From the IMG/VR virus record IMGVR_UViG_3300022690_001927, positions 1-42,549 of that record: a DNA stretch of 42,549 nt. One strand, 5' to 3'. This DNA is from a virus. The notes below the pieces were generated by a model. The model was not told where the DNA came from. It ran no database searches and saw nothing but the letters and a program-made list of their open reading frames with translations. Position numbers and translations under genes: made by a program. Shown piece after piece: positions 5,188 through 40,659 of the stretch; within the stretch, counting starts at the first letter, position 1; every line of letters begins with the position of its first letter.

Positions 5188-7074
5188 CTATACCTCCGTT
5201 TCTATAATTATAGATCCACCAGTTTGAAAAACAACTCTCAACTCTGTTAGTCCTCCTGCTGTTGGAACAGTAAATAGTATAGCTGTATTTGTTTGATTGC
5301 CAGGTCTGAATCCTGTAGCATATCCCTCAATAATTGCATGTCCTGACTTTACATAAATAAAATTCATTGCTTGAGTTGGCGCACCTAGATCATCAGTATC
5401 ATCTACATTTGGCGTAATGTTACCAACTGTATCACCATTAAAAGTAATAGTATCTGCTGAGTCACTTCCAAGTGTAATATTCCCATTGAAAATAGAGGGA
5501 CCAGCATAAGTATTAGTTCCAGTCCATGTTTGTGATACTACTCCTAAACCTGCTAAATCAGTTGTAGCGTCTGGAAGAGTTAGTGTACGATTACCTGTAT
5601 GATTGGATTGTAGAGACATTACCTGACCTGTAGTAGCACCTGCTAGCAGAAAGTTCAACTGTTTAGTAATGTCTGTTGTATTCTGTATGAAAAACCCACC
5701 TGATCGAAGAGCAACATCAGTAAAAATATTATCAGCCGTAAAGGTTTGGTTTATTGATAATCCTGCAAGTGTAGTTGTAGAATCTGGTAGAGTCACTGTA
5801 CGATTGGCTGTGTGATTAGATTCTATGGACATTACCTGACCTGTAGTAGCACCTGCCAATAGGAAATTCAACTGCTTTGTGATATCACTAGTGTTTTGTA
5901 TAAAGAACTGAGCAGTCCTGACTGCAACATCTCCGACAAATGTATTCGCACCTGTCCAAGATTGAGTGACGGATAGACCTGCCAAGACGGTTGTAGCATC
6001 GGGAAATGTCACTGTACGAAAAGCAGTATGGTTAGATTCAAGTGTAAGAGTTTGGCCTGTTGTTGCTCCTGCAAAGTCAAATAACATTTGTTTTGTAATG
6101 TCAGCAGTATTTTGAACAAAGAAATTTGTATCTCTTACACTAATGGATGCAGTAAAAATATTTTCACCAGTCCAAGTTTGAGATGTGATACCTAATCCTC
6201 CAAGTGTAGTAGTACCATTTGGTAATGTGATTGTACGATTGGCTGTATGATTGGATGCTATAGTTACAACTTGACCTGTAGTAGCACCTGCTAATGCGAA
6301 GTTCAATTGCTTTGTAATATCTGCACTATTTTGGATAAAGAAACCAGCAGTTCTAACTGAAACATCAGAAGTAAAAATATTGATGCCCGACCATGTTTGT
6401 GAAACAACACCCAATCCGGCAAGAGTTACACTTGCATTTGGAAGTGTCATTACTCTAGTTGTGGAAGTAGTGAATCCGTCAATTTCAAATCTCATTAATT
6501 TTGTAGGATCTGCACTTCCCTTCACCAACGGATCACTGTCAATGAATGGTGGATTAATTACATCACCAGCTGACCCGATAAAAACTGACCACTTGTTTGC
6601 TCTAATATCGTAACGTAATCGTAACTGCTCATTACTGTTTAAAACAATACTAGTTACACCATCTCCCAAAAATATATTATCAGTATCATCTACTGTAATC
6701 ACATCTCCAGTATCTGCTTGGATTGTAATGTCTTCATATGAAATTACAAAATTATTAATTGATGATAATGTATCTACAGTTCCAGTTTCTGCTTGGACTA
6801 TAACATGAGATGATAATTTACTAGAATCAAGTCCAATATCTATTGCACCAGACACAATTGGAATGATTGATGCTGTATACCCTATTACACCACCTATTAC
6901 ATTTGGCCTTCCTAGCTGTAGAAACTTGTTAATGTCAAATTCTGGTTGTGGATTGGTTAAAAACTGACCATGATCTATGTTTGAATTTTGAGACATGAAC
7001 GTTTCAAATTTAGCATTAGATGTAAGCTGCTTAGCTATAAAGTCTTCATCATTGCTTCTTGCCTTTCCTGTCAT
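5188..7074 (-). CDS. tail fibre / receptor-binding protein with internal repeats
   Basis: 628 residues. The N-terminal ~210 residues form a tail-attachment and beta-prism-like region; GSADPTKLMRFEIDG is a phrase seen in many phage fibres. Four ~72-residue repeats follow (about 212-500) with core FFIQNTxDITKQLNF, LAGATTGQ, SNHTANRT and LPDxTTTLAGL. The C-terminal ~110 residues contain a distinct DDTDDLGAPTQ stretch and a final beta domain. The role is presumably host adsorption at the tail tip. ATG overlaps the hub gene stop (ATGA). Confidence 0.8.
   Translation of the reverse strand: MTGKARSNDEDFIAKQLTSNAKFETFMSQNSNIDHGQFLTNPQPEFDINKFLQLGRPNVIGGVIGYTASIIPIVSGAIDIGLDSSKLSSHVIVQAETGTVDTLSSINNFVISYEDITIQADTGDVITVDDTDNIFLGDGVTSIVLNSNEQLRLRYDIRANKWSVFIGSAGDVINPPFIDSDPLVKGSADPTKLMRFEIDGFTTSTTRVMTLPNASVTLAGLGVVSQTWSGINIFTSDVSVRTAGFFIQNSADITKQLNFALAGATTGQVVTIASNHTANRTITLPNGTTTLGGLGITSQTWTGENIFTASISVRDTNFFVQNTADITKQMLFDFAGATTGQTLTLESNHTAFRTVTFPDATTVLAGLSVTQSWTGANTFVGDVAVRTAQFFIQNTSDITKQLNFLLAGATTGQVMSIESNHTANRTVTLPDSTTTLAGLSINQTFTADNIFTDVALRSGGFFIQNTTDITKQLNFLLAGATTGQVMSLQSNHTGNRTLTLPDATTDLAGLGVVSQTWTGTNTYAGPSIFNGNITLGSDSADTITFNGDTVGNITPNVDDTDDLGAPTQAMNFIYVKSGHAIIEGYATGFRPGNQTNTAILFTVPTAGGLTELRVVFQTGGSIIIETEV
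5577..6441 (-). repeat. four tandem ~216-bp coding repeats in tail fibre
   Basis: These encode the four ~72-residue units of the fibre shaft. Repeats 3 and 4 (nearest the C terminus) are most alike, including LLAGATTGQVM, while the first two are more diverged. This suggests growth by duplication from one side. Confidence 0.7.
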
Positions 7075-12461: not shown

Positions 12462-12824
12462 TTATGTCACCCAGAAAATAGTATTAACTGGTGATTTGAT
12501 CAATGTATTATTTATCTTTGCAGCTACAGTAAATTCCCAATTTCCTATCAAGTCAAGAAATGATGGTGTATCTTCATCTAAAAATACGATAAAAGAGTCT
12601 TCTGGAGTAGATGGGCTTTCAAGAAATGCTCCTTGGTCAAAACCATCTCTCATTTGATCATCTGTAGGGATTTGTATTCCGTCAGGTTTACGAAATACGA
12701 CATATACCTTGTCAAATCCTGTAAGATCTACAGGTACTGGATTGTCAGGATCTGTACGGTCTATAAGCTTGCCTTTCCATTTGTTTCCAGTACTTCTAAA
12801 TTCAAATCTATTTGTTATAGTCAA
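12462..12824 (-). CDS. BppU-like Ig-fold baseplate/tail protein (120 aa)
   Basis: TTG start overlapping the stop of the repeat gene (TTGA). Beta pattern DLTGFDKVYVVFRKPDG ... GNWEFTVAAKINN matches the N-terminal immunoglobulin-like domain of phage baseplate upper proteins (BppU). 120 residues is just that domain. It probably links peripheral tail fibres to the baseplate. It is placed next to the repeat protein, which may be its partner. Confidence 0.55.
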   Translation of the reverse strand: MTITNRFEFRSTGNKWKGKLIDRTDPDNPVPVDLTGFDKVYVVFRKPDGIQIPTDDQMRDGFDQGAFLESPSTPEDSFIVFLDEDTPSFLDLIGNWEFTVAAKINNTLIKSPVNTIFWVT

Positions 12825-13447
12825 ACTGGATTCTCTGAGGTTATCTCCGTAATTAAGTTGTTTTCTGAAGATAGAGTCTTTACAATTATCAGTCCATCAA
12901 TAGTATGCTTAAATTTAGTAGTCTTTTCCACCGCATTGAAAACATTGTGTTTGAAAATTGTAGTTTTCTCTGCTGTGCCAAAAATATCATGTATGAATAT
13001 CGTAGTCTTTGAAATAGCTTCTTGAATATCATGTCTAAATATTGTAGTCTTTGAGACAGCAGCACCTATACTATGTTTGAATATTGTTATTTTTGGTACA
13101 ATTTCTAAAATAGTATGCTTAAATATTGTAGTTTTTGAAACACCTGCAATTATTCCATGTTTGAATATTGTAGTCTTTGATACTCTTATTCCTATCTCAT
13201 GCTTGAATATTGTAGTTTTTGATACGACTTGGGCTACAGTATGCTTGAATATCGTAGTCTTTGAGACAGCATTAATTATGTTATGCTTGAATATCGTAGT
13301 CTTTGCAGCAATTCCATTTACTACGTGTTTGAATATTGTAGTTTTTGAAATAGGTGCTTGAATATCGTGCTTGAATATTGTAGTTTTTGATGCTACTTGA
13401 TCTAAACCTAAAGATACTATATCATGAGTATGTGCTAAAGATGGCAT
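12821..13447 (-). CDS. tandem 14-residue repeat protein, 12 x KTTIFKH
   Basis: 208 residues. Residues 20-187 are twelve contiguous 14-residue repeats with core (S/A/E)KTTIFKH and a variable six- or seven-residue partner containing I/V at alternate places. The N-terminal cap contains HTHDIV; the 21-residue C terminus is acidic. Strong beta propensity and a histidine every 14 residues suggest a beta-solenoid or trimeric beta-helix fibre shaft. It lies between a small beta protein and BppU-like gene with a TTGA overlap, so it is part of the tail operon. No known family recognised. Confidence 0.75.
   Translation of the reverse strand: MPSLAHTHDIVSLGLDQVASKTTIFKHDIQAPISKTTIFKHVVNGIAAKTTIFKHNIINAVSKTTIFKHTVAQVVSKTTIFKHEIGIRVSKTTIFKHGIIAGVSKTTIFKHTILEIVPKITIFKHSIGAAVSKTTIFRHDIQEAISKTTIFIHDIFGTAEKTTIFKHNVFNAVEKTTKFKHTIDGLIIVKTLSSENNLITEITSENPV
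12887..13390 (-). repeat. twelve 42-bp coding repeats (CRISPR-like appearance)
   Basis: On the plus strand a ~23-nt block such as TTGAATATTGTAGTCTTTGA recurs every 42 bp, separated by ~19 variable bases. The period is exactly three-fold and the minus frame is open throughout. Third-base changes dominate inside the conserved block. Confidence 0.85.
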
Positions 13448-13448
13448 A

Positions 13449-13772
13449 TTATGATGTGTATAATGCGAAAGTTATTGTTTTAAAAGGTCCAGATACTTGC
13501 TCGCATGTTACTCTATATGATGATGAGGGCATCCAGTTTACTAGTATTTCTGGGTTTGTTTGTGCCCCTCTAACTATTGTAGTTCTATATTTTTTTTCAG
13601 TTGCAGCAAACTCATCTAAATCAAAAATACGAATTAGTATCTCATCACCAGCTACTAGTTCATCAAAAAATACTTTAGTTGAATAGTGTTTTAATCCTAC
13701 TTGTGATGCAAACAAGTCTTGCTCTGTACCATTCATAAGAAGTTCATCATCAAGTACAAGTTCTAAAGCCAT
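13449..13772 (-). CDS. beta-rich tail operon protein (107 aa)
   Basis: ATG start shares bases with the upstream stop (TAATG). Beta-strand-rich sequence with an acidic N terminus (LELVLDDELLMNGTEQ) and EILIRIFDLDEF. No Cys pair or membrane segment. Likely a small structural or decoration protein. Unrecognised. Confidence 0.6.
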   Translation of the reverse strand: MALELVLDDELLMNGTEQDLFASQVGLKHYSTKVFFDELVAGDEILIRIFDLDEFAATEKKYRTTIVRGAQTNPEILVNWMPSSSYRVTCEQVSGPFKTITFALYTS

Positions 13773-14383
13773 TATGGTATTACCTCTGTTTGTTGTGTTC
13801 TATGAGAATCTGGTGAATTGATTTGTTTGGTTGCAGTAGCTGTTGTTATAATTTCTGCTGCATGTGTGTCAGTTAACACAATAAACATTAGAGTTACAGT
13901 GATAGATGCAAAACTATTAACATCATCTTCCTCTAGAGTGTAGTCAAATGTTCCAGCAGGGGGATTGATATCAATAAATGTATTCTCTAGAAAAATTTCT
14001 GCACCGGTAGTACTATTTCTTACAATAGTAGTAAAACTGCTTAAATCACTGGTGTCTCTTCTGAGAACCACATTTTTAACAAGAGTGCTACCATCAGTCA
14101 AAATAGGTGCAGCATATGTATTGATTATTAGAATACTATTAGGAGGAGTTGTAATATTTGAAAAAGTTACTATTGGATTTCCAATACTTACAGAGACAGT
14201 TAGTCTATCAGTTACGCTAGATCCAGCAGTAGAAGCTCTATGTTGTTGAGTGGTAGTATTTCCACCTTCTGAGAGAGTAGCATCTCCAGTTAATCCAGCT
14301 ACTGCAGAAGTATCAATAATTCCAATACTATCTTCTGCTTCACCAAACAGTTTTGGATTTTTATTTGGAAATATATCACTCAT
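13772..14383 (-). CDS. Thr/Ser-rich beta structural protein (203 aa)
   Basis: The N-terminal ~65 residues are low-complexity and polar (Gly/Ser/Thr, QQHRASTAGSS), followed by a beta-sandwich-like region (~65-175) and a hydrophobic strand (ITVTLMFIVLTD). It looks like a secreted or virion surface beta domain. ATGA overlap with the upstream gene. No family assigned. Confidence 0.55.
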   Translation of the reverse strand: MSDIFPNKNPKLFGEAEDSIGIIDTSAVAGLTGDATLSEGGNTTTQQHRASTAGSSVTDRLTVSVSIGNPIVTFSNITTPPNSILIINTYAAPILTDGSTLVKNVVLRRDTSDLSSFTTIVRNSTTGAEIFLENTFIDINPPAGTFDYTLEEDDVNSFASITVTLMFIVLTDTHAAEIITTATATKQINSPDSHRTQQTEVIP

Positions 14384-14742
14384 AGTCTAAGCTCATCCCT
14401 TGCAGTTAGTATCAGTTCTCTTGATGCACCCTCAGCTACCAAACTTGTTAGTGTAATTTTCATATCTTCACCAGCTCCATCTAGTACGATTGTAACTCCT
14501 GTTGCATCTTCAAAATCATCAGGAAATAGAGCTCCTCCTGCATCTATATTTTCATAATTTACTCCATCTATTCTTTCCAAGACTCTGATTAGTGTCTGTT
14601 GCGTTATCTCGTCAAAACTGATATGATGGGTAATTTTTTCTCTTAAAAGAAGATGCTCAATTAAATCAGTCTCAGCAGTTGTGTTTGGGTGGTTTACTGT
14701 TCTCGTTCTTAGTACTGTTGTAACTTCGCCTGCATCTACCAA
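14380..14742 (-). CDS. hypothetical tail-operon protein (120 aa)
   Basis: The N-terminal strand region is followed by an HHISFDEITQQTLIRVLERIDG helix, then an acidic loop and C-terminal strands (DMKITLTSLVAEG). Mixed alpha/beta. Cotranscribed with the beta-rich small proteins. Function unknown. Confidence 0.55.
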   Translation of the reverse strand: MVDAGEVTTVLRTRTVNHPNTTAETDLIEHLLLREKITHHISFDEITQQTLIRVLERIDGVNYENIDAGGALFPDDFEDATGVTIVLDGAGEDMKITLTSLVAEGASRELILTARDELRL

Positions 14743-14757
14743 AAAATCACCATGAAC

Positions 14758-15129
14758 TTACTTGTCCAAGTTCTGTGAAATATTATATGCCACAGATGAT
14801 TCTGGAACAATTATTTTTACAGTAAATTTCGTATTGCATGTACGGCATTTTATTTCCTTATCGTTGTTAAATATAGGTACAACATTTATCGCATTACAAT
14901 TAACTTCTATAGTATTTTTTTTAATTTTATTTGTACATGGTACAAAAAATATTGGAACTTTTGAATTTTGAAGTGCTGCAATCCATTCTTTTCCTTTAGA
15001 GTCTTTTGTAGCATATAGATTATCAGAATTATCCCATATCATTTCAAGACCATTTGAATTAAAAAATTTTCTAGGTGCATTTTTGTAATCTATCTCAAGT
15101 TGTTTTTTTAGATCATCTCTTAAGGTCAT
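14758..15129 (-). CDS. zinc-knuckle protein (123 aa)
   Basis: ATGA overlap with the upstream gene. Residues ~60-105 hold four cysteines (PCTNK, VNCNA, CRTC), suggesting a zinc ribbon, preceded by a WIAALQ helix and strands. It resembles small zinc proteins found inside archaeal viral structural operons. Role unknown. Confidence 0.55.
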   Translation of the reverse strand: MTLRDDLKKQLEIDYKNAPRKFFNSNGLEMIWDNSDNLYATKDSKGKEWIAALQNSKVPIFFVPCTNKIKKNTIEVNCNAINVVPIFNNDKEIKCRTCNTKFTVKIIVPESSVAYNISQNLDK

Positions 15130-15650
15130 GGTAAGGTATCTCCTTCTGCCCTTATGGTATAGGTATCTAATGTTGAAGTTGCTGCTGCATTTACATTATA
15201 TCTTAACCAATGACCTCGAAAATCGTTTTGATCAAGATCACCTATTGCTATTCCTGTAGCTTTAGTTGCAGGAGCTGTAAATGATGGACCTACTGGTGCA
15301 GTTTCTTCATCAGCAATAGTTTCTATATCTAAATTTTTAGCTTCATCTGCTATTGCAATAGCGATATCAGTATCACCAGAACTAGTTTGTGATTCAACCC
15401 AAAATACAGGAGCTGTCCATGTAAGTACAGAACTAGTAATTTCATTAGAATAAAAAAAGCCACGATAAATTACAATTCCTGCTGCTGCCTCGGTACTTGT
15501 AATATCATCCATATCATTATTATCAGTATCAGATACGATAACACCGGCAGGATCTGCAGCATTTATTGCACCACCTAATGATGCATCTGGATCTACATCT
15601 GAACCAGCTCCCGAATATCTATGAATAAGATCACTTTCTACTATAGGCAA
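15126..15650 (-). CDS. phage virion-type beta protein (174 aa)
   Basis: Pattern DLIHRYSGAGSDVDPDASLGGAI, EAAAGIVIYRGFFYSN, TAPVGPSFTAPATKATGIAIGDL and FRGHWLRYNV matches a widespread phage structural protein found near head/tail genes (LRLSGG..NTDPNASLGG family, known to me by sequence style). It is probably exposed on the virion. It is the first gene of the leftward tail operon, with a promoter-like motif and inverted repeat in the 87-bp spacer upstream. Confidence 0.6.
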   Translation of the reverse strand: MPIVESDLIHRYSGAGSDVDPDASLGGAINAADPAGVIVSDTDNNDMDDITSTEAAAGIVIYRGFFYSNEITSSVLTWTAPVFWVESQTSSGDTDIAIAIADEAKNLDIETIADEETAPVGPSFTAPATKATGIAIGDLDQNDFRGHWLRYNVNAAATSTLDTYTIRAEGDTLP

Positions 15651-28346: not shown

Positions 28347-28982
28347 TCATACTAGTTTTGCCTTCTTCTTTCCCCAAGTGTCAGTTTTGTGATGACAATC
28401 AACACATAACGTTCTACCATTAGATAGTACTGTTCTTAATTCATGATATGTTGCAAATGGTTTGATGTGATCTACATGTAACGTTGGTCTGAATCCTTTC
28501 TTTCCTCTTGCTCCACATGATTGACAGGCAAAATTATCTCGTTTAAGAACAGCCAATCTCCAATTAGTATAGTCTATTGTGTCTCTTTCTCTATAATCAG
28601 TTCTGTCAGGATTCCAAAAAGGATGTAGTTTGCCTCGTTTCCAAGCGTTCTTTGGGATTTTACCTTTCTTTGCAAGACTCATTTTTTTGATTGTAAGTGG
28701 AGATAGTTTTCTTCCTGTGTAAGATATGTTTCTACACTCATTTGAACAAAATATTTTTGATATTCTCTCTTTACCATAAGTAGAAAATTCCTTTTGACAA
28801 ATTAAGCATGATTTTATTGTTGGGGGATTACGATTAGACCAACAAATTTTAGAACAGTATTTTCTAATTATAATTTGACCTCCAAACTTTCCATTTTGTT
28901 CATTAGTAGCATAAAATTCATTACTACAAACTAAGCAAGTTTTTAATGGTGCTCGTTTTATTCTTCTTTTATCTTGCTCCAT
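28347..28982 (-). CDS. HNH endonuclease with two N-terminal zinc fingers
   Basis: 211 residues. Two C-x2-C...C-x3-C fingers (CLVCSNEF/YCSKIC and CLICQKEF/FCSNEC) precede ISYTGRKLSPLTIKKMSLAKK, a DNA-binding segment of homing-type HNH enzymes. The HNH core is CQSCG ... LHVDHIKPFA ... NGRTLCVDCHHK. Overlaps the methyltransferase by 25 nt. It may be a homing endonuclease, a packaging partner of terminase, or the nuclease of the neighbouring methylase. Confidence 0.8.
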   Translation of the reverse strand: MEQDKRRIKRAPLKTCLVCSNEFYATNEQNGKFGGQIIIRKYCSKICWSNRNPPTIKSCLICQKEFSTYGKERISKIFCSNECRNISYTGRKLSPLTIKKMSLAKKGKIPKNAWKRGKLHPFWNPDRTDYRERDTIDYTNWRLAVLKRDNFACQSCGARGKKGFRPTLHVDHIKPFATYHELRTVLSNGRTLCVDCHHKTDTWGKKKAKLV

Positions 28983-30202
28983 TTTTTATTATCGCTTACT
29001 CTTATTGGATCTTTTCCTGTATAATTAGACCATCTATCTAAAATTACTGATACATACGAAGCGTCAATTTCCATTCCAAAACATGCCCTGCCTGTTTGCT
29101 CACATGCTAGTAGTGTAGAACCTGAACCTAAGAATGGATCATAGATTACTTTGCCTAGGGTATTAGTTATAATTTGAGTTAGCAATTCAAGTGGCTTTTC
29201 TGTGGGATGATTTTTGTTCCCTGTTCTTTTTGCTTGTAATACATTGCCCCTCTTTCCATCTAACATTTTTCCTGCTGTTCGTTTACAGTATAAAATTAAT
29301 TCGTGCTGAGTTCTCCAAGGGAATCCCATACCCATACTAGTCTTATCCCATACAAGCATATTCCTTACAGGAAATGACATTTGTTCAGCAATATCACAAT
29401 TCCAAACCCACATTCGCCAATCTGTAAACAAGTAAAGAACATCTGCATTAATTCCTATTAGCATTTCTCTGATCAAAGCAGAATATCCCCTAGTGGATAA
29501 ATTATCATTTAATATGGTGGCATTTTGTCTTGTTCCTATACTGCCTGTCTTTTTACCTGCCTCTTGAAAGCCTCCAGATGAATAAGGAGGATCAGTTAGT
29601 ATAATATCAGGATGAATATCTTCAAATAATTTTTGTTTATCGGTAGAAACTCTACAATTACCACATATTATCCGATGCTCACCCAATTGGTATATCTCAC
29701 CAAGTTTTGATTTAGGATTTGCTGGTGGTTCTGGTATTTCTTCAGTCTCTTCTTTTGGATCTAAAGTAATTACCTCATCCCAATTTACTTCAAATGTGTT
29801 TAGATCAGGCAATGAAATATCCTCTAAAAGCAATTGTACATTATCATCAACCCAAGGTGATTCATTGACATAATTATCCATGTACATGAATAGATCCATC
29901 TGTTTTTTTGTGAGTCCTTCAAGTGGCACATATGGGACTCTAGTCATTCCTAGTTTTTCTGCAGCATCTAGTCTGCCATGACCTGCTTTGATATTTTCTT
30001 TTTTGTCAATTACTATAGGATCTTTGAAGCCAACTATTTTCATTAATTCCATTAAATTTTTTATTTGCTCTTCTGGATGCTTTTTGATGTTGTTTGGATG
30101 TCTCTTTAGCCTGGATATCTCAATGAGTGGTAATCCCTTTAGTATTTTGATTCCGTTTTCTAAAATATAATTTACATTGGTAACAGTATTCCCCTTGCTC
30201 AC
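28958..30202 (-). CDS. ParB-fused DNA methyltransferase (N4/N6 type, beta-like)
   Basis: 414 residues. The N-terminal ParB/sulfiredoxin-like domain (~20-100) includes KAGHGRLDAAEKLG (72-85). The methyltransferase has DPPY at 204-207 (motif IV), then HPTEKPLELL and DPFLGSGST (~355-363, motif I), an order with IV before I. It transfers a methyl group from S-adenosylmethionine to DNA bases, probably for protection of viral DNA. GTG start at 30202, preceded by a non-coding region holding a hairpin (30336-30390). Confidence 0.85.
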   Translation of the reverse strand: MSKGNTVTNVNYILENGIKILKGLPLIEISRLKRHPNNIKKHPEEQIKNLMELMKIVGFKDPIVIDKKENIKAGHGRLDAAEKLGMTRVPYVPLEGLTKKQMDLFMYMDNYVNESPWVDDNVQLLLEDISLPDLNTFEVNWDEVITLDPKEETEEIPEPPANPKSKLGEIYQLGEHRIICGNCRVSTDKQKLFEDIHPDIILTDPPYSSGGFQEAGKKTGSIGTRQNATILNDNLSTRGYSALIREMLIGINADVLYLFTDWRMWVWNCDIAEQMSFPVRNMLVWDKTSMGMGFPWRTQHELILYCKRTAGKMLDGKRGNVLQAKRTGNKNHPTEKPLELLTQIITNTLGKVIYDPFLGSGSTLLACEQTGRACFGMEIDASYVSVILDRWSNYTGKDPIRVSDNKKWSKIKEE

Positions 30203-32047: not shown

Positions 32048-32845
32048 TCAAACTAATTTTTGATCCTCTAGTTTGGTTAACACAATACAATCCATTGTTT
32101 CAGTCATTGACTTTATGTGACCTGATGGCTTGTGCTTGTATGTCATTTGTCTATATGGAATTAGTTCATAGTAGTATCTAGTTACAAGTTCAAAGCCTAC
32201 ATCTAGAGCTTGATTTAGAAAATCTAGTATCAAAGGAATTGTTTTACCCTCGTGCATCCTGTCTCTTGCATCTAAGATACATGCTCCATTTGGTTTTAGT
32301 TTGTCAAAGTAAGATTGTATAACTGCCTTTGAACCTCTGAAAAATGTATCATAGTTTGGTGAGTTTGAAAGATCTCCGCCTTCATGTGAATAGTTATTTT
32401 TATCACCGATAATATTCAGTCCAAAAGGTAATGATGATAGGATAAGATCAGGCTCTTCCCAGTCAATATATCCATCTGGAACTTCTGATCTTGCATCCAT
32501 TAGATAATATTTAGGATTATTTAGAACATCGTGTTTCATTGCTAATTCTATTGCCTTTGGATTTACGTCTGTTCCTAGTCCTATTCTGTTCATTCTGTTT
32601 GCTATTCTTGGAACTATTCCAGATCCACAGCAACCATCCCATACAATATCACCTTCATTAGAGTACAGAGTTATCATATCTCTTGCAAAATCTTCAGGCA
32701 TCTTTGCAGGATAGTTATCTTCAAACTCAAATCTTAGATTATAATGCAGTACTGACAAGGGAGATTTTATTTTTCTTACAATCTCAAAGGATTCGGGAAA
32801 TTTTTCTTTTCTTGCTCTTGGATTATCAAATGATTTAAGACTCAT
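32048..32845 (-). CDS. DNA/RNA methyltransferase-like protein (265 aa)
   Basis: Motif I VWDGCCGSGIV (68-78), GTDVNP (91-96, acidic after strand 2), and motif IV-like SSLPFG (137-142; an SPPF-type site in which the first Pro is Leu). RDRMHEG and later strands complete a class I fold. ATGA overlap with the upstream 70-residue gene. Substrate, DNA adenine or cytosine-N4, cannot be told. Paired with the nuclease candidate downstream. Confidence 0.7.
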   Translation of the reverse strand: MSLKSFDNPRARKEKFPESFEIVRKIKSPLSVLHYNLRFEFEDNYPAKMPEDFARDMITLYSNEGDIVWDGCCGSGIVPRIANRMNRIGLGTDVNPKAIELAMKHDVLNNPKYYLMDARSEVPDGYIDWEEPDLILSSLPFGLNIIGDKNNYSHEGGDLSNSPNYDTFFRGSKAVIQSYFDKLKPNGACILDARDRMHEGKTIPLILDFLNQALDVGFELVTRYYYELIPYRQMTYKHKPSGHIKSMTETMDCIVLTKLEDQKLV

Positions 32846-38316: not shown

Positions 38317-38835
38317 TTGTCAAAAAGCAATAATATATCATTTCGACTAAGTGATGAAAATAACGATAAGTTACAAAACTTGGCAGATATGCAAGACAGT
38401 CAAAAAAGTACAGTGGCATCAACCATTGTTACTAGTTTCTTAAATGAAAATATGGAAGATCTAATAATAAACCATATATCATATCCAAGACCTGTAATTA
38501 AGAAACTATTTACTTCATTAAGTGAGGAACAGATAATAAATCTAATATCTGAATTTAATGGTTATAATAAAGGAATAATAAAATCAGCAAGACACAACAA
38601 TTCATCAACCAAGATTTTAATACTTTTAAGAAAATGGCTAAAGTCTTGTGGTTGTGAGGTTCATCTATCATCATATGGCAAGCAACAAAATATAGAGATT
38701 CATCATGAAATGGAGAAGAATTGGTCTGTTGTAACCTGTACAACAATTACGTACATTTTAGAAATACTTGGATATAAAATAAAAAGATCATTTGTTGAAG
38801 ATAGTTGGTTTAAGATTGAGTATCTACCAAATTAG
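38317..38835 (+). CDS. ribbon-helix-helix-type regulator, plus strand (172 aa)
   Basis: TTG start. SNNISFRLSDENNDKLQNLADMQDSQKSTVASTIVTSFL at the start is an Arc/CopG-like RHH (beta strand NISFRL, two helices). The rest is a helical/mixed domain with paired Cys (KSCGCEV) and IEIHHEMEKNW. It is divergent from the early operon and convergent with the integrase, overlapping it by 26 bp. The best candidate for the lysogeny or early-gene regulator acting on the TTGTATCACAA sites (inference). Confidence 0.65.
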   Translation: MSKSNNISFRLSDENNDKLQNLADMQDSQKSTVASTIVTSFLNENMEDLIINHISYPRPVIKKLFTSLSEEQIINLISEFNGYNKGIIKSARHNNSSTKILILLRKWLKSCGCEVHLSSYGKQQNIEIHHEMEKNWSVVTCTTITYILEILGYKIKRSFVEDSWFKIEYLPN

Positions 38836-40063
38836 TTTTATTATAATTTTCTAGTTTTTCATCTCTTAGTTTAGCCAAGGTTTGTTTTGTCTCATTTTCA
38901 AATCTCAGTCTAGCTTCTCGTTCTAGCTTTAAATCTTCTTCTAATTTAGTATTTTTATTTAGTTCAAGTTTTAATGCGTTCTTTTCAGCTTTCTCTTTTG
39001 CCAATTCTAGGACAGCTCTTTCCTCATCTGATATTGTTAGAAATGGTATGGCCTTTTGATATTCTGCGAATCTTTCAAAATCCGCTTCTACATATTTTTC
39101 ATAGGATCCTTGCTGGCTTCCTGCATCTCTACCTTGCATATCTGCTAGATCAGCAAGATTAACCTTAGCTCGCCTCATCATAGTATTGTTGTATTTTCTA
39201 AATCCATGATCTAGCATTACTTCATGTCTTTTTTCTCCAGGCTCTAGTTTTTCCCTCATTCCAATGCCTGAGACAAAGTTTACAGTTCTAGTTTTGACAC
39301 CATTAGCTCTTAATCTTCTTGGGTATGGGAACCGCACCGATACTAGAAATGGATCTTTCTCTGTTGGATATTTGAAGAATCTATTTTTCCATTCTTCCTT
39401 GTATAGTAAAACATACTTGCAAAATTCAGGTGTTGTGTGTGTCCAGTATTCTTCTATGTCTCCGTGATATACTCGAATAGCACCACCTTTTACAGTACTA
39501 TCTTCATTGTAAAAAATGATAACATCTGACCAAGTGAAATAATCCCATGCTTCTAATCTAAATCCGGCAGATGATGCGCCAGTAATGATTATTTTATCTG
39601 CTAGATCAACTGTTCTTTTCATCATTAGTTGAAGCTCCTCTCTAGTGTATGCTCTGTCATTACTTTTACCAACTAGAGGAAGTGATTTGTCTACGAGATA
39701 CCAGGAGATCTCAATATCGTTTGAATTTAATAATGCCTTTATTGGTTTGAGTCTATTTTTGGCAGTTCCTGCAGATATGGTTTTATCTTCAATCTGCTTT
39801 TTTAAATCCCTCACATATGCCTGAATTATTGACTTTGCAATTTTGACGTTCTTTTGAGCAATTTCTGTGAAGCAGGTTGCTAGATCCTGAACTTCTCTTG
39901 ATCTTGGCTCATATGTCAAATATCGTTTGTACATGTCATTTGGAATTAACTGTAAAAAGTGATGCAGATAACTATTGTATTTTCTGAATGTCTCTGTGTT
40001 TCTTATAGAGTCTATAAAATTTTGATATGCATCGCCTTCGATGTCTTCTAGTTTTATTTCCAA
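38810..40063 (-). CDS. int: tyrosine recombinase/integrase
   Basis: 417 residues. An N-terminal SAM-like core-binding helical domain (~10-115) precedes the catalytic domain: Arg169 (AGFRLEAWDYFTW), HGFR at 286-289 (His and Arg), and a Tyr in SQQGSYEKYV (Tyr321/324). This is the divergent archaeal-type arrangement. The C-terminal ~70 residues form a coiled coil. It integrates or excises circular viral DNA. TTG start overlaps the membrane gene. Confidence 0.8.
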   Translation of the reverse strand: MEIKLEDIEGDAYQNFIDSIRNTETFRKYNSYLHHFLQLIPNDMYKRYLTYEPRSREVQDLATCFTEIAQKNVKIAKSIIQAYVRDLKKQIEDKTISAGTAKNRLKPIKALLNSNDIEISWYLVDKSLPLVGKSNDRAYTREELQLMMKRTVDLADKIIITGASSAGFRLEAWDYFTWSDVIIFYNEDSTVKGGAIRVYHGDIEEYWTHTTPEFCKYVLLYKEEWKNRFFKYPTEKDPFLVSVRFPYPRRLRANGVKTRTVNFVSGIGMREKLEPGEKRHEVMLDHGFRKYNNTMMRRAKVNLADLADMQGRDAGSQQGSYEKYVEADFERFAEYQKAIPFLTISDEERAVLELAKEKAEKNALKLELNKNTKLEEDLKLEREARLRFENETKQTLAKLRDEKLENYNKTNLVDTQS

Positions 40064-40534: not shown

Positions 40535-40550
40535 ATTTTTTATCATTAAT

Positions 40551-40625
40551 GGAGACGAAGGGCTTCGATCCCTTGATCTCTCAGGTCGTGAACCGAGTAT
40601 TTTATCCATACTATACTACGTCCCC
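40551..40625 (-). tRNA. tRNA gene, probably Val (CAC), irregular arms
   Basis: 75 nt. Acceptor stem GGGGACG/CGTCTCC (7 bp, one G-U). D arm GTAT/ATAC with GG in the loop. T arm AAGGG-ATCGAAG-CCCTT (5 bp). Variable loop 5 nt. Anticodon arm CTCGG/CTGAG with an 8-nt loop TTCACGAC, or a bulged 7-nt loop with CAC. T-loop position 54 is A instead of U. No encoded CCA. Irregularities suggest a viral or decaying copy. Confidence 0.6.
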
Positions 40626-40659
40626 AGCAAAATAATTTTTATAAGAATTAAAAATGTGT

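What the first reader, a model, noticed from the sequence alone, without database searches (positions are those of the whole stretch)
12887..13390. Twelve 14-residue KTTIFKH repeats masquerading as a CRISPR array
42-bp period, ~23-nt conserved block and ~19-nt variable block on the plus strand look CRISPR-like, yet the minus frame codes for a continuous repeat protein with coupled neighbours in the tail operon. A histidine every 14 residues and a variable flank suggest a beta-solenoid fibre with changeable faces, and DNA repeats permit length change by recombination. Family not known to me.
Basis: partly seen in the sequence, partly recalled or inferred. Interest (0 to 1): 0.72.

Follow-up and report, generated by a model that had tools for sequence, protein, structure and literature searches.

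The report
Repeat protein in viral adsorption cassette
A small virion-gene cassette of uncultivated tailed viruses encodes a rod-like protein made of eleven or twelve copies of a 14-residue unit, each with an invariant phenylalanine and histidine and a fast-changing loop; it is probably part of the tail or spike apparatus that meets the host, and it is not a CRISPR array.

Summary
Variation in the conserved block sits at third codon positions, so the array is selected as protein. It is not a CRISPR.

I found two relatives in IMG/VR, carrying 11 and 12 units. Phe6 and His8 are invariant in 35/35 units. None was found in INPHARED, the PDB, Pfam (above cut-off) or GTDB species genomes.

All three proteins end the same six-gene cassette. 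In one relative the cassette has moved to the other side of the tail-fibre genes. In another it sits in a genome with related lectin and spike genes but an unrelated major capsid protein. That is how a host-recognition module behaves.

Unit number is nearly fixed (12/11/12), loops keep their orthologous order (window vs L002 P about 1e-4), and neighbouring units are no more alike than distant ones.

AlphaFold2 monomer models are all-beta but low-confidence (pLDDT 67-69), have no significant fold match, and are of a kind AF2 over-predicts. A fibrous beta-rod in the adsorption apparatus is the best reading (about 0.55). Fold, oligomer, virion position and host remain unshown.

The parts
12821..13447 (-). 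208-aa repeat protein: N-terminal degenerate unit (aa 1-19), 12 x 14-aa units (aa 20-187), 21-aa C-terminal tail
12887..13390 (-). array of twelve 42-bp units encoding [S/A]-K-T-T-I-F-K-H-x-[I/V]-x-x-x-[V/I/A]
13449..13772 (-). 107-aa cassette protein directly upstream; 82% identical in L002, 42% in L049
13772..14383 (-). 203-aa cassette protein; 43% in L002, 39% in L049
14380..14742 (-). 120-aa cassette protein; 54% in L002, 37% in L049
14758..15129 (-). 123-aa cassette protein with four Cys (zinc-ribbon-like by eye, not tested); 50% in L002, 53% in L049
15126..15650 (-). 174-aa first cassette gene; matches phrog_13135; homologue lies inside the virion structural block of Vibrio phage KVP40
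12462..12824 (-). 120-aa gene overlapping the stop of the repeat gene (TTGA); 31% identical homologue in G001 directly before the 167-aa tail gene; a small positional counterpart (113 aa, no BLASTP match) follows the repeat gene in L049
15738..17255 (-). 505-aa spike-like protein upstream of the cassette; related genes in G001, G004 and L008
17252..18433 (-). 393-aa protein with a concanavalin/pentaxin-like lectin domain; 54% identical gene in G004
5188..7074 (-). 628-aa long repetitive fibre-like protein; in L002 the cassette lies downstream of its homologue

Best explanation
The gene encodes a fibrous or rod-like virion protein of near-fixed length that belongs to a portable six-gene host-recognition (adsorption) cassette of tailed viruses. 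Shown: a protein-coding array of 11-12 units; invariant Phe6/His8 and always hydrophobic position 10 (nearly always at 14); loop positions 9 and 11-13 nearly unconstrained; the cassette conserved as a block and found at different sites relative to the fibre genes and on different virion backbones. Inferred: each unit adds one layer to a beta-rod, with Phe6/His8/Ile10/Val14 inside and loops 9 and 11-13 exposed; several chains, probably three, wind together; the exposed loops adapt to the host surface while the number of layers sets the length.
For: Strong constraint on the cores (orthologous pN/pS 0.08/0.44) and nearly none on the loops (0.48/0.54). 35/35 invariant F6 and H8 across three viruses. 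Unit number 12/11/12. Cassette order 174-123-120-203-107-repeat is kept in L002 and in L049, where one extra ORF is inserted. In G001 the window's cassette site holds a 203-aa and a 709-aa fibre-like gene, and the cassette lies after the 680-aa fibre instead. L005 lacks it at both places. In G004 the cassette and related spike and lectin genes sit in a genome whose major capsid protein has no BLASTP match to the window's. First cassette gene belongs to phrog_13135, found between gp15 and gp16 of KVP40. High beta propensity at positions 3-6, 10 and 14; AF2 models all-beta.
Against: No detectable homology to any protein of known function or structure (best PHROG hits weak and of unknown function). 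AF2 confidence is low and AF2 has a known solenoid bias. No trimer could be modelled. Hydropathy does not show clean two-residue alternation. No proteomics or imaging; position in the virion rests on gene neighbourhood alone.
Confidence: 0.55

Rival explanations
1. A monomeric beta-solenoid virion decoration (head or tail surface), not a multimeric fibre; loops variable because unconstrained, not because they touch the host.
For: The monomer model is already solenoid-like with Z about 9 to monomeric solenoids; loop pN/pS is about 0.9, as expected from relaxed constraint, not clearly above 1; other cassette proteins are small and could be decorations.
Against: AF2 solenoid bias (PMC11795689); the model's confidence is low; the cassette is shared together with spike and lectin genes.
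Confidence: 0.25
2. A contingency locus: the 42-bp repeats let the virus change fibre length by recombination.
For: Tandem DNA repeats exist; one lineage (L002) has 11 instead of 12 units, the missing unit being the C-terminal one.
Against: Unit number is near-fixed across proteins sharing 47-58% identity; interior loops keep orthologous register (P about 1e-4); no excess similarity between adjacent units; cores are only 82% identical.
Confidence: 0.08
3. A CRISPR array or other functional DNA/RNA repeat that happens to be open in one frame.
For: 42-bp period with conserved and variable blocks; position-specific codon choice (Phe6 TTC in 31/35 units against 19-23% in neighbouring genes).
Against: Differences between units fall on third codon positions of the minus frame; the same protein, not the same DNA, is kept in L049; repeats are too divergent; no Rfam match.
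Confidence: 0.02
4. A secreted or cell-surface viral protein (for example surface-layer binding or amyloid-like) expressed late but not part of the virion.
For: Repeat architecture resembles extracellular solenoids; curli CsgA is among the rows.
Against: No signal peptide is evident by eye in the N-terminus (MPSLAHTHDI...); the gene lies within a cassette of virion-type genes in all three viruses and overlaps the next gene in the window.
Confidence: 0.1

Closest known systems
Trimeric left-handed parallel beta-roll heads (YadA/BpaC type)
   Same: 14-residue period, one layer per unit, Thr/Ile/Val-rich cores (PMC9543794)
   Different: YadA motif is GxNSVAIGAxSxAx with a completely conserved Gly; here no conserved Gly, invariant Phe and His instead; no sequence match
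T4 gp37 long-tail-fibre needle with metal-binding histidines
   Same: Regularly spaced conserved histidines along a virion rod; in T4 three chains' histidines bind iron (PMC6957217)
Archaeal and bacterial tail-fibre adhesins in exchangeable host-range loci (for example Hafunaviridae adhesins)
   Same: Conserved scaffold with hypervariable segments, in a variable, host-range-type region (PMC8651126)
   Different: Those adhesins are glycine-rich and resemble T-even adhesins; this protein has no detectable relation and is not glycine-rich
phrog_13135 (174-aa gene of the same cassette; KVP40 homologue between gp15 and gp16)
   Same: The first cassette gene is a member (E 1e-13)
   Different: The repeat protein was not found in those phages

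Membership tests
CRISPR array | Near-identical direct repeats separated by unrelated spacers, non-coding | tested here: not met
   cores 82% identical, third-position changes, one continuous ORF kept in three viruses
YadA-type left-handed parallel beta-roll | about 14-residue repeat | tested here: met
   units exactly 14 residues
YadA-type left-handed parallel beta-roll | canonical motif GxNSVAIGAxSxAx with invariant Gly | tested here: not met
   no invariant Gly; the most frequent is position 12, Gly in 10 of 35 units; motif from PMC9543794
YadA-type left-handed parallel beta-roll | trimeric fold | not testable with these tools
   monomer prediction only; low confidence
T4 gp37-type HxH metal needle | repeated H-x-H motifs binding metal in a trimer | tested here: not met
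   FxH in 35/35 units, no repeated HxH
Beta-solenoid proteins (fold class) | regular stacked parallel beta-coils | tested here: inconclusive
   AF2 all-beta, best Z 9.0 over 194 residues, rmsd 4.0, to a generic solenoid, under the level trusted for repeats
Hypervariable tandem-repeat (length-variable) fibre | unit number varies between close relatives | tested here: inconclusive
   12/11/12 among three distant relatives; no close strains available
phrog_13135 (neighbouring 174-aa gene) | profile match over most of the family | tested here: met
   E 1.1e-13, profile 32-180 of 182
Pfam or PDB family of any kind (repeat protein itself) | match above the curated cut-off, or a solved homologue | tested here: not met

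The most novel reading that the evidence does not exclude
A modular display rod whose conserved 24-bp cores are homogenised within each virus by very short gene-conversion tracts while the intervening loops diversify independently, giving a fixed-length scaffold with rapidly changing faces. In L049 core codons are strongly linked (P < 0.0005), yet units 6 and 7 share 23/24 core bases and only 4/18 loop bases; position 4 is Thr in 23/23 units of two viruses and Leu/Ile/Val in 12/12 of the third.
Probability: 0.15. Interest if true: 0.62.

Novelty: new variant of a known kind. Interest (0 to 1): 0.42.

Why it matters
It would add an undescribed short-repeat fibre family to viral attachment apparatus, with an unusually clean split between an invariant scaffold and free loops. 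It also marks a portable adsorption cassette that can be used to recognise host-recognition regions in uncultivated tailed viruses. The 12/11/12 unit count makes it a natural test of whether repeat number is selected as a length ruler.

Tried and rejected
CRISPR/RNA reading: rejected. INPHARED: no repeat-protein match; portal, capsid, integrase and a further early-region protein also unmatched; terminase matches only distant, mostly Bacillus phages. A 21%-identity match of the L049 protein to a Vibrio phage record under a gene annotated tail sheath stabilizer (E 0.02) and weak PHROG hits (phrog_12521, phrog_10969) were treated as chance or compositional, without further test. The loose pattern F.H.[IV] x3 gave 70 contigs; most hits were short, low-complexity or apparently antisense frames, L036 is a different 14-aa repeat on the opposite strand, and L063 is antisense to a WVNSNSS-repeat protein; only L049 is a true relative. 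AF2 models with one and two sequences gave no significant Foldseek match in PDB or BFVD. The Pfam MunI hit (E 0.004, below cut-off) was rejected as compositional.

Full report
Observation. The region 12887-13390 is exactly twelve 42-bp units without indels. It is read on the minus strand as codons 20-187 of a 208-residue gene (12821-13447). TRF finds the same array. The unit is S-K-T-T-I-F-K-H-x-I-x-x-x-V: a 24-nt core with mean identity 0.82 among units and an 18-nt loop with 0.43. Core identity by codon position is 0.93, 0.88 and 0.63, so the array is conserved as protein in this frame and is not a CRISPR. A shuffled protein never gave more than 3 in-register FxH, against 12 observed. Rfam finds nothing in the window.

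Relatives. A protein search and exact DNA patterns in 2.9 million IMG/VR contigs gave one relative, L002 (11 units; 58% identity). A looser pattern asking only for F-x-H-x-[IV] at 14-residue spacing, three units in a row, gave 70 contigs. One of these, L049, encodes a true third member: 206 aa, 12 units with mostly K-[T/S]-[L/I/V]-x-F-K-H, 47% identity over the alignment, E 4e-50. No relative was found in INPHARED, in PDB sequences or in GTDB species genomes, and no Pfam family reached its cut-off. PHROG hits were weak. The window and the relatives come from uncultivated virus contigs; the host is unknown.

Anatomy of the unit. Over 35 units of three viruses, Phe6 and His8 are invariant. Position 10 is always hydrophobic and position 14 nearly always; positions 9, 11, 12 and 13 are close to free. 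The N-terminal residues (AHTHDI, AHTHDI, ATRHNI) look like a degenerate capping unit.

Evolution. Orthologous loops of the window and L002 are more alike than re-paired loops (0.38 against 0.23; P about 1e-4), and the window-L049 pair shows the same weakly (P 0.03). L002-L049 shows none. The order of units has therefore been kept at least between window and L002. Adjacent units are not more alike than distant ones, so there is no sign of recent tandem duplication. The unit count is 12, 11 and 12; L002 lacks the last unit, which L049 has, so 12 is probably ancestral (inference). Between window and L002 orthologues pN/pS is 0.08/0.44 in cores and 0.48/0.54 in loops 9 and 11-13: strong constraint in one, almost none in the other. 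The cores behave in concert within a virus. Position 4 is Thr in 23/23 units of window and L002 and Leu/Ile/Val in 12/12 of L049. In L049 core codons are linked (P < 0.0005) although core similarity does not predict loop similarity. Phe6 is TTC in 31/35 units although TTC makes up only 19-23% of Phe codons in neighbouring genes. Short-tract conversion, loop diversification after duplication, or a DNA- or translation-level constraint could each explain this; I cannot separate them.

Genome context. The repeat gene ends a cassette 174-123-120-203-107-repeat. The same order occurs in L002 and, with one inserted ORF, in L049. In the window the cassette lies between a 505-aa spike-like gene and the tail genes 120-167-224-258-160-980. 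In the genome of L002 (G001) the site after the spike holds a 203-aa and a 709-aa fibre-like gene, and the cassette lies instead after the 680-aa fibre and before the holin-like gene. L005, with tail genes 69-83% identical, lacks the cassette at both places; its record is a fragment. L008 has the window's arrangement until its contig ends within the cassette. In G004 (L049) the cassette and homologues of the lectin (54%) and spike (32%) genes occur in a genome whose major capsid protein and tail genes, as far as read, give no BLASTP match to those of the window. The first cassette gene belongs to phrog_13135, whose KVP40 member lies between gp15 and gp16. Block conservation with different placement around fibre genes and across backbones is what a host-recognition module shows; that the repeat protein itself touches the host is inference.

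Structure. Two AF2 monomer models (one and two sequences) are all-beta with pLDDT 67 and 69 and pTM 0.70 and 0.67. Foldseek gives nothing significant in PDB or BFVD. The second-look aligner gives Z up to 9 with unrelated solenoids, which is not diagnostic for repeats. AF2 tends to give confident but unrealistic solenoids for repeats (PMC11795689); here confidence is not even high. Composition favours strands at positions 3-6, 10 and 14, though hydropathy does not alternate cleanly.

Mechanism. Most likely each unit adds one layer to a beta-rod, probably of three chains as is usual for tail fibres (archaeal example: HFTV1, three trimeric tail fibres, PMC12494034). Phe6/His8/Ile10/Val14 would form the interior and the loops the variable surface. 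The histidines could stack or bind metal, as the iron-binding histidines of T4 gp37 do (PMC6957217), but the HxH motif itself is absent from the units. The near-fixed unit count argues for a length set by selection. All of this paragraph is inference.

Verdict. The protein family appears undescribed in the resources searched, but it most probably belongs to a known kind of thing: a repetitive virion fibre in an exchangeable adsorption module.

Noticed in passing
window 12821-15650; L002 2800-5591; L049 1968-5204: A six-gene cassette is portable: conserved order, different genomic sites, and shared with a virus whose major capsid protein has no BLASTP match to the window's.
   Followed up: yes
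L049 4186-4692: A 168-aa ORF is inserted between the first two cassette genes; by eye it resembles a LAGLIDADG-type homing endonuclease, but Pfam gives no match.
   Followed up: partly
L091 61-1533 (G004): A 490-aa ORF carries a long array of 12-nt units (NQI[DHR] repeats) that is open in several frames.
   Followed up: no
window 5188-7074; L002 351-2393; L005 10937-13414: The long fibre-like protein has about 73-aa repeats (219-bp period in L002 and L005) and differs in length, 628, 680 and 825 aa, between relatives: a better candidate for repeat-number change than the 14-residue array.
   Followed up: partly
window 28347-28982: 211-aa protein whose C-terminal part matches the NCBIfam IscB model below its cut-off (E 6e-7); probably a plain HNH endonuclease.
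   Followed up: no
window 28958-30202 and 32048-32845: Two DNA methylase (N6_N4_Mtase) genes, the first with a weak ParB-like N-terminus.
   Followed up: no
window 40549-40626: ARAGORN reports one tRNA-like gene with an undetermined four-base anticodon (cacg), near the putative integrase gene 38810-40063; it might mark an attachment site.
   Followed up: no
L036 914-1993: Unrelated 14-aa tandem repeat (MAKISDPMKEYREM), about ten nearly identical units in a phage protein; found only as a by-product of the pattern search.
   Followed up: no
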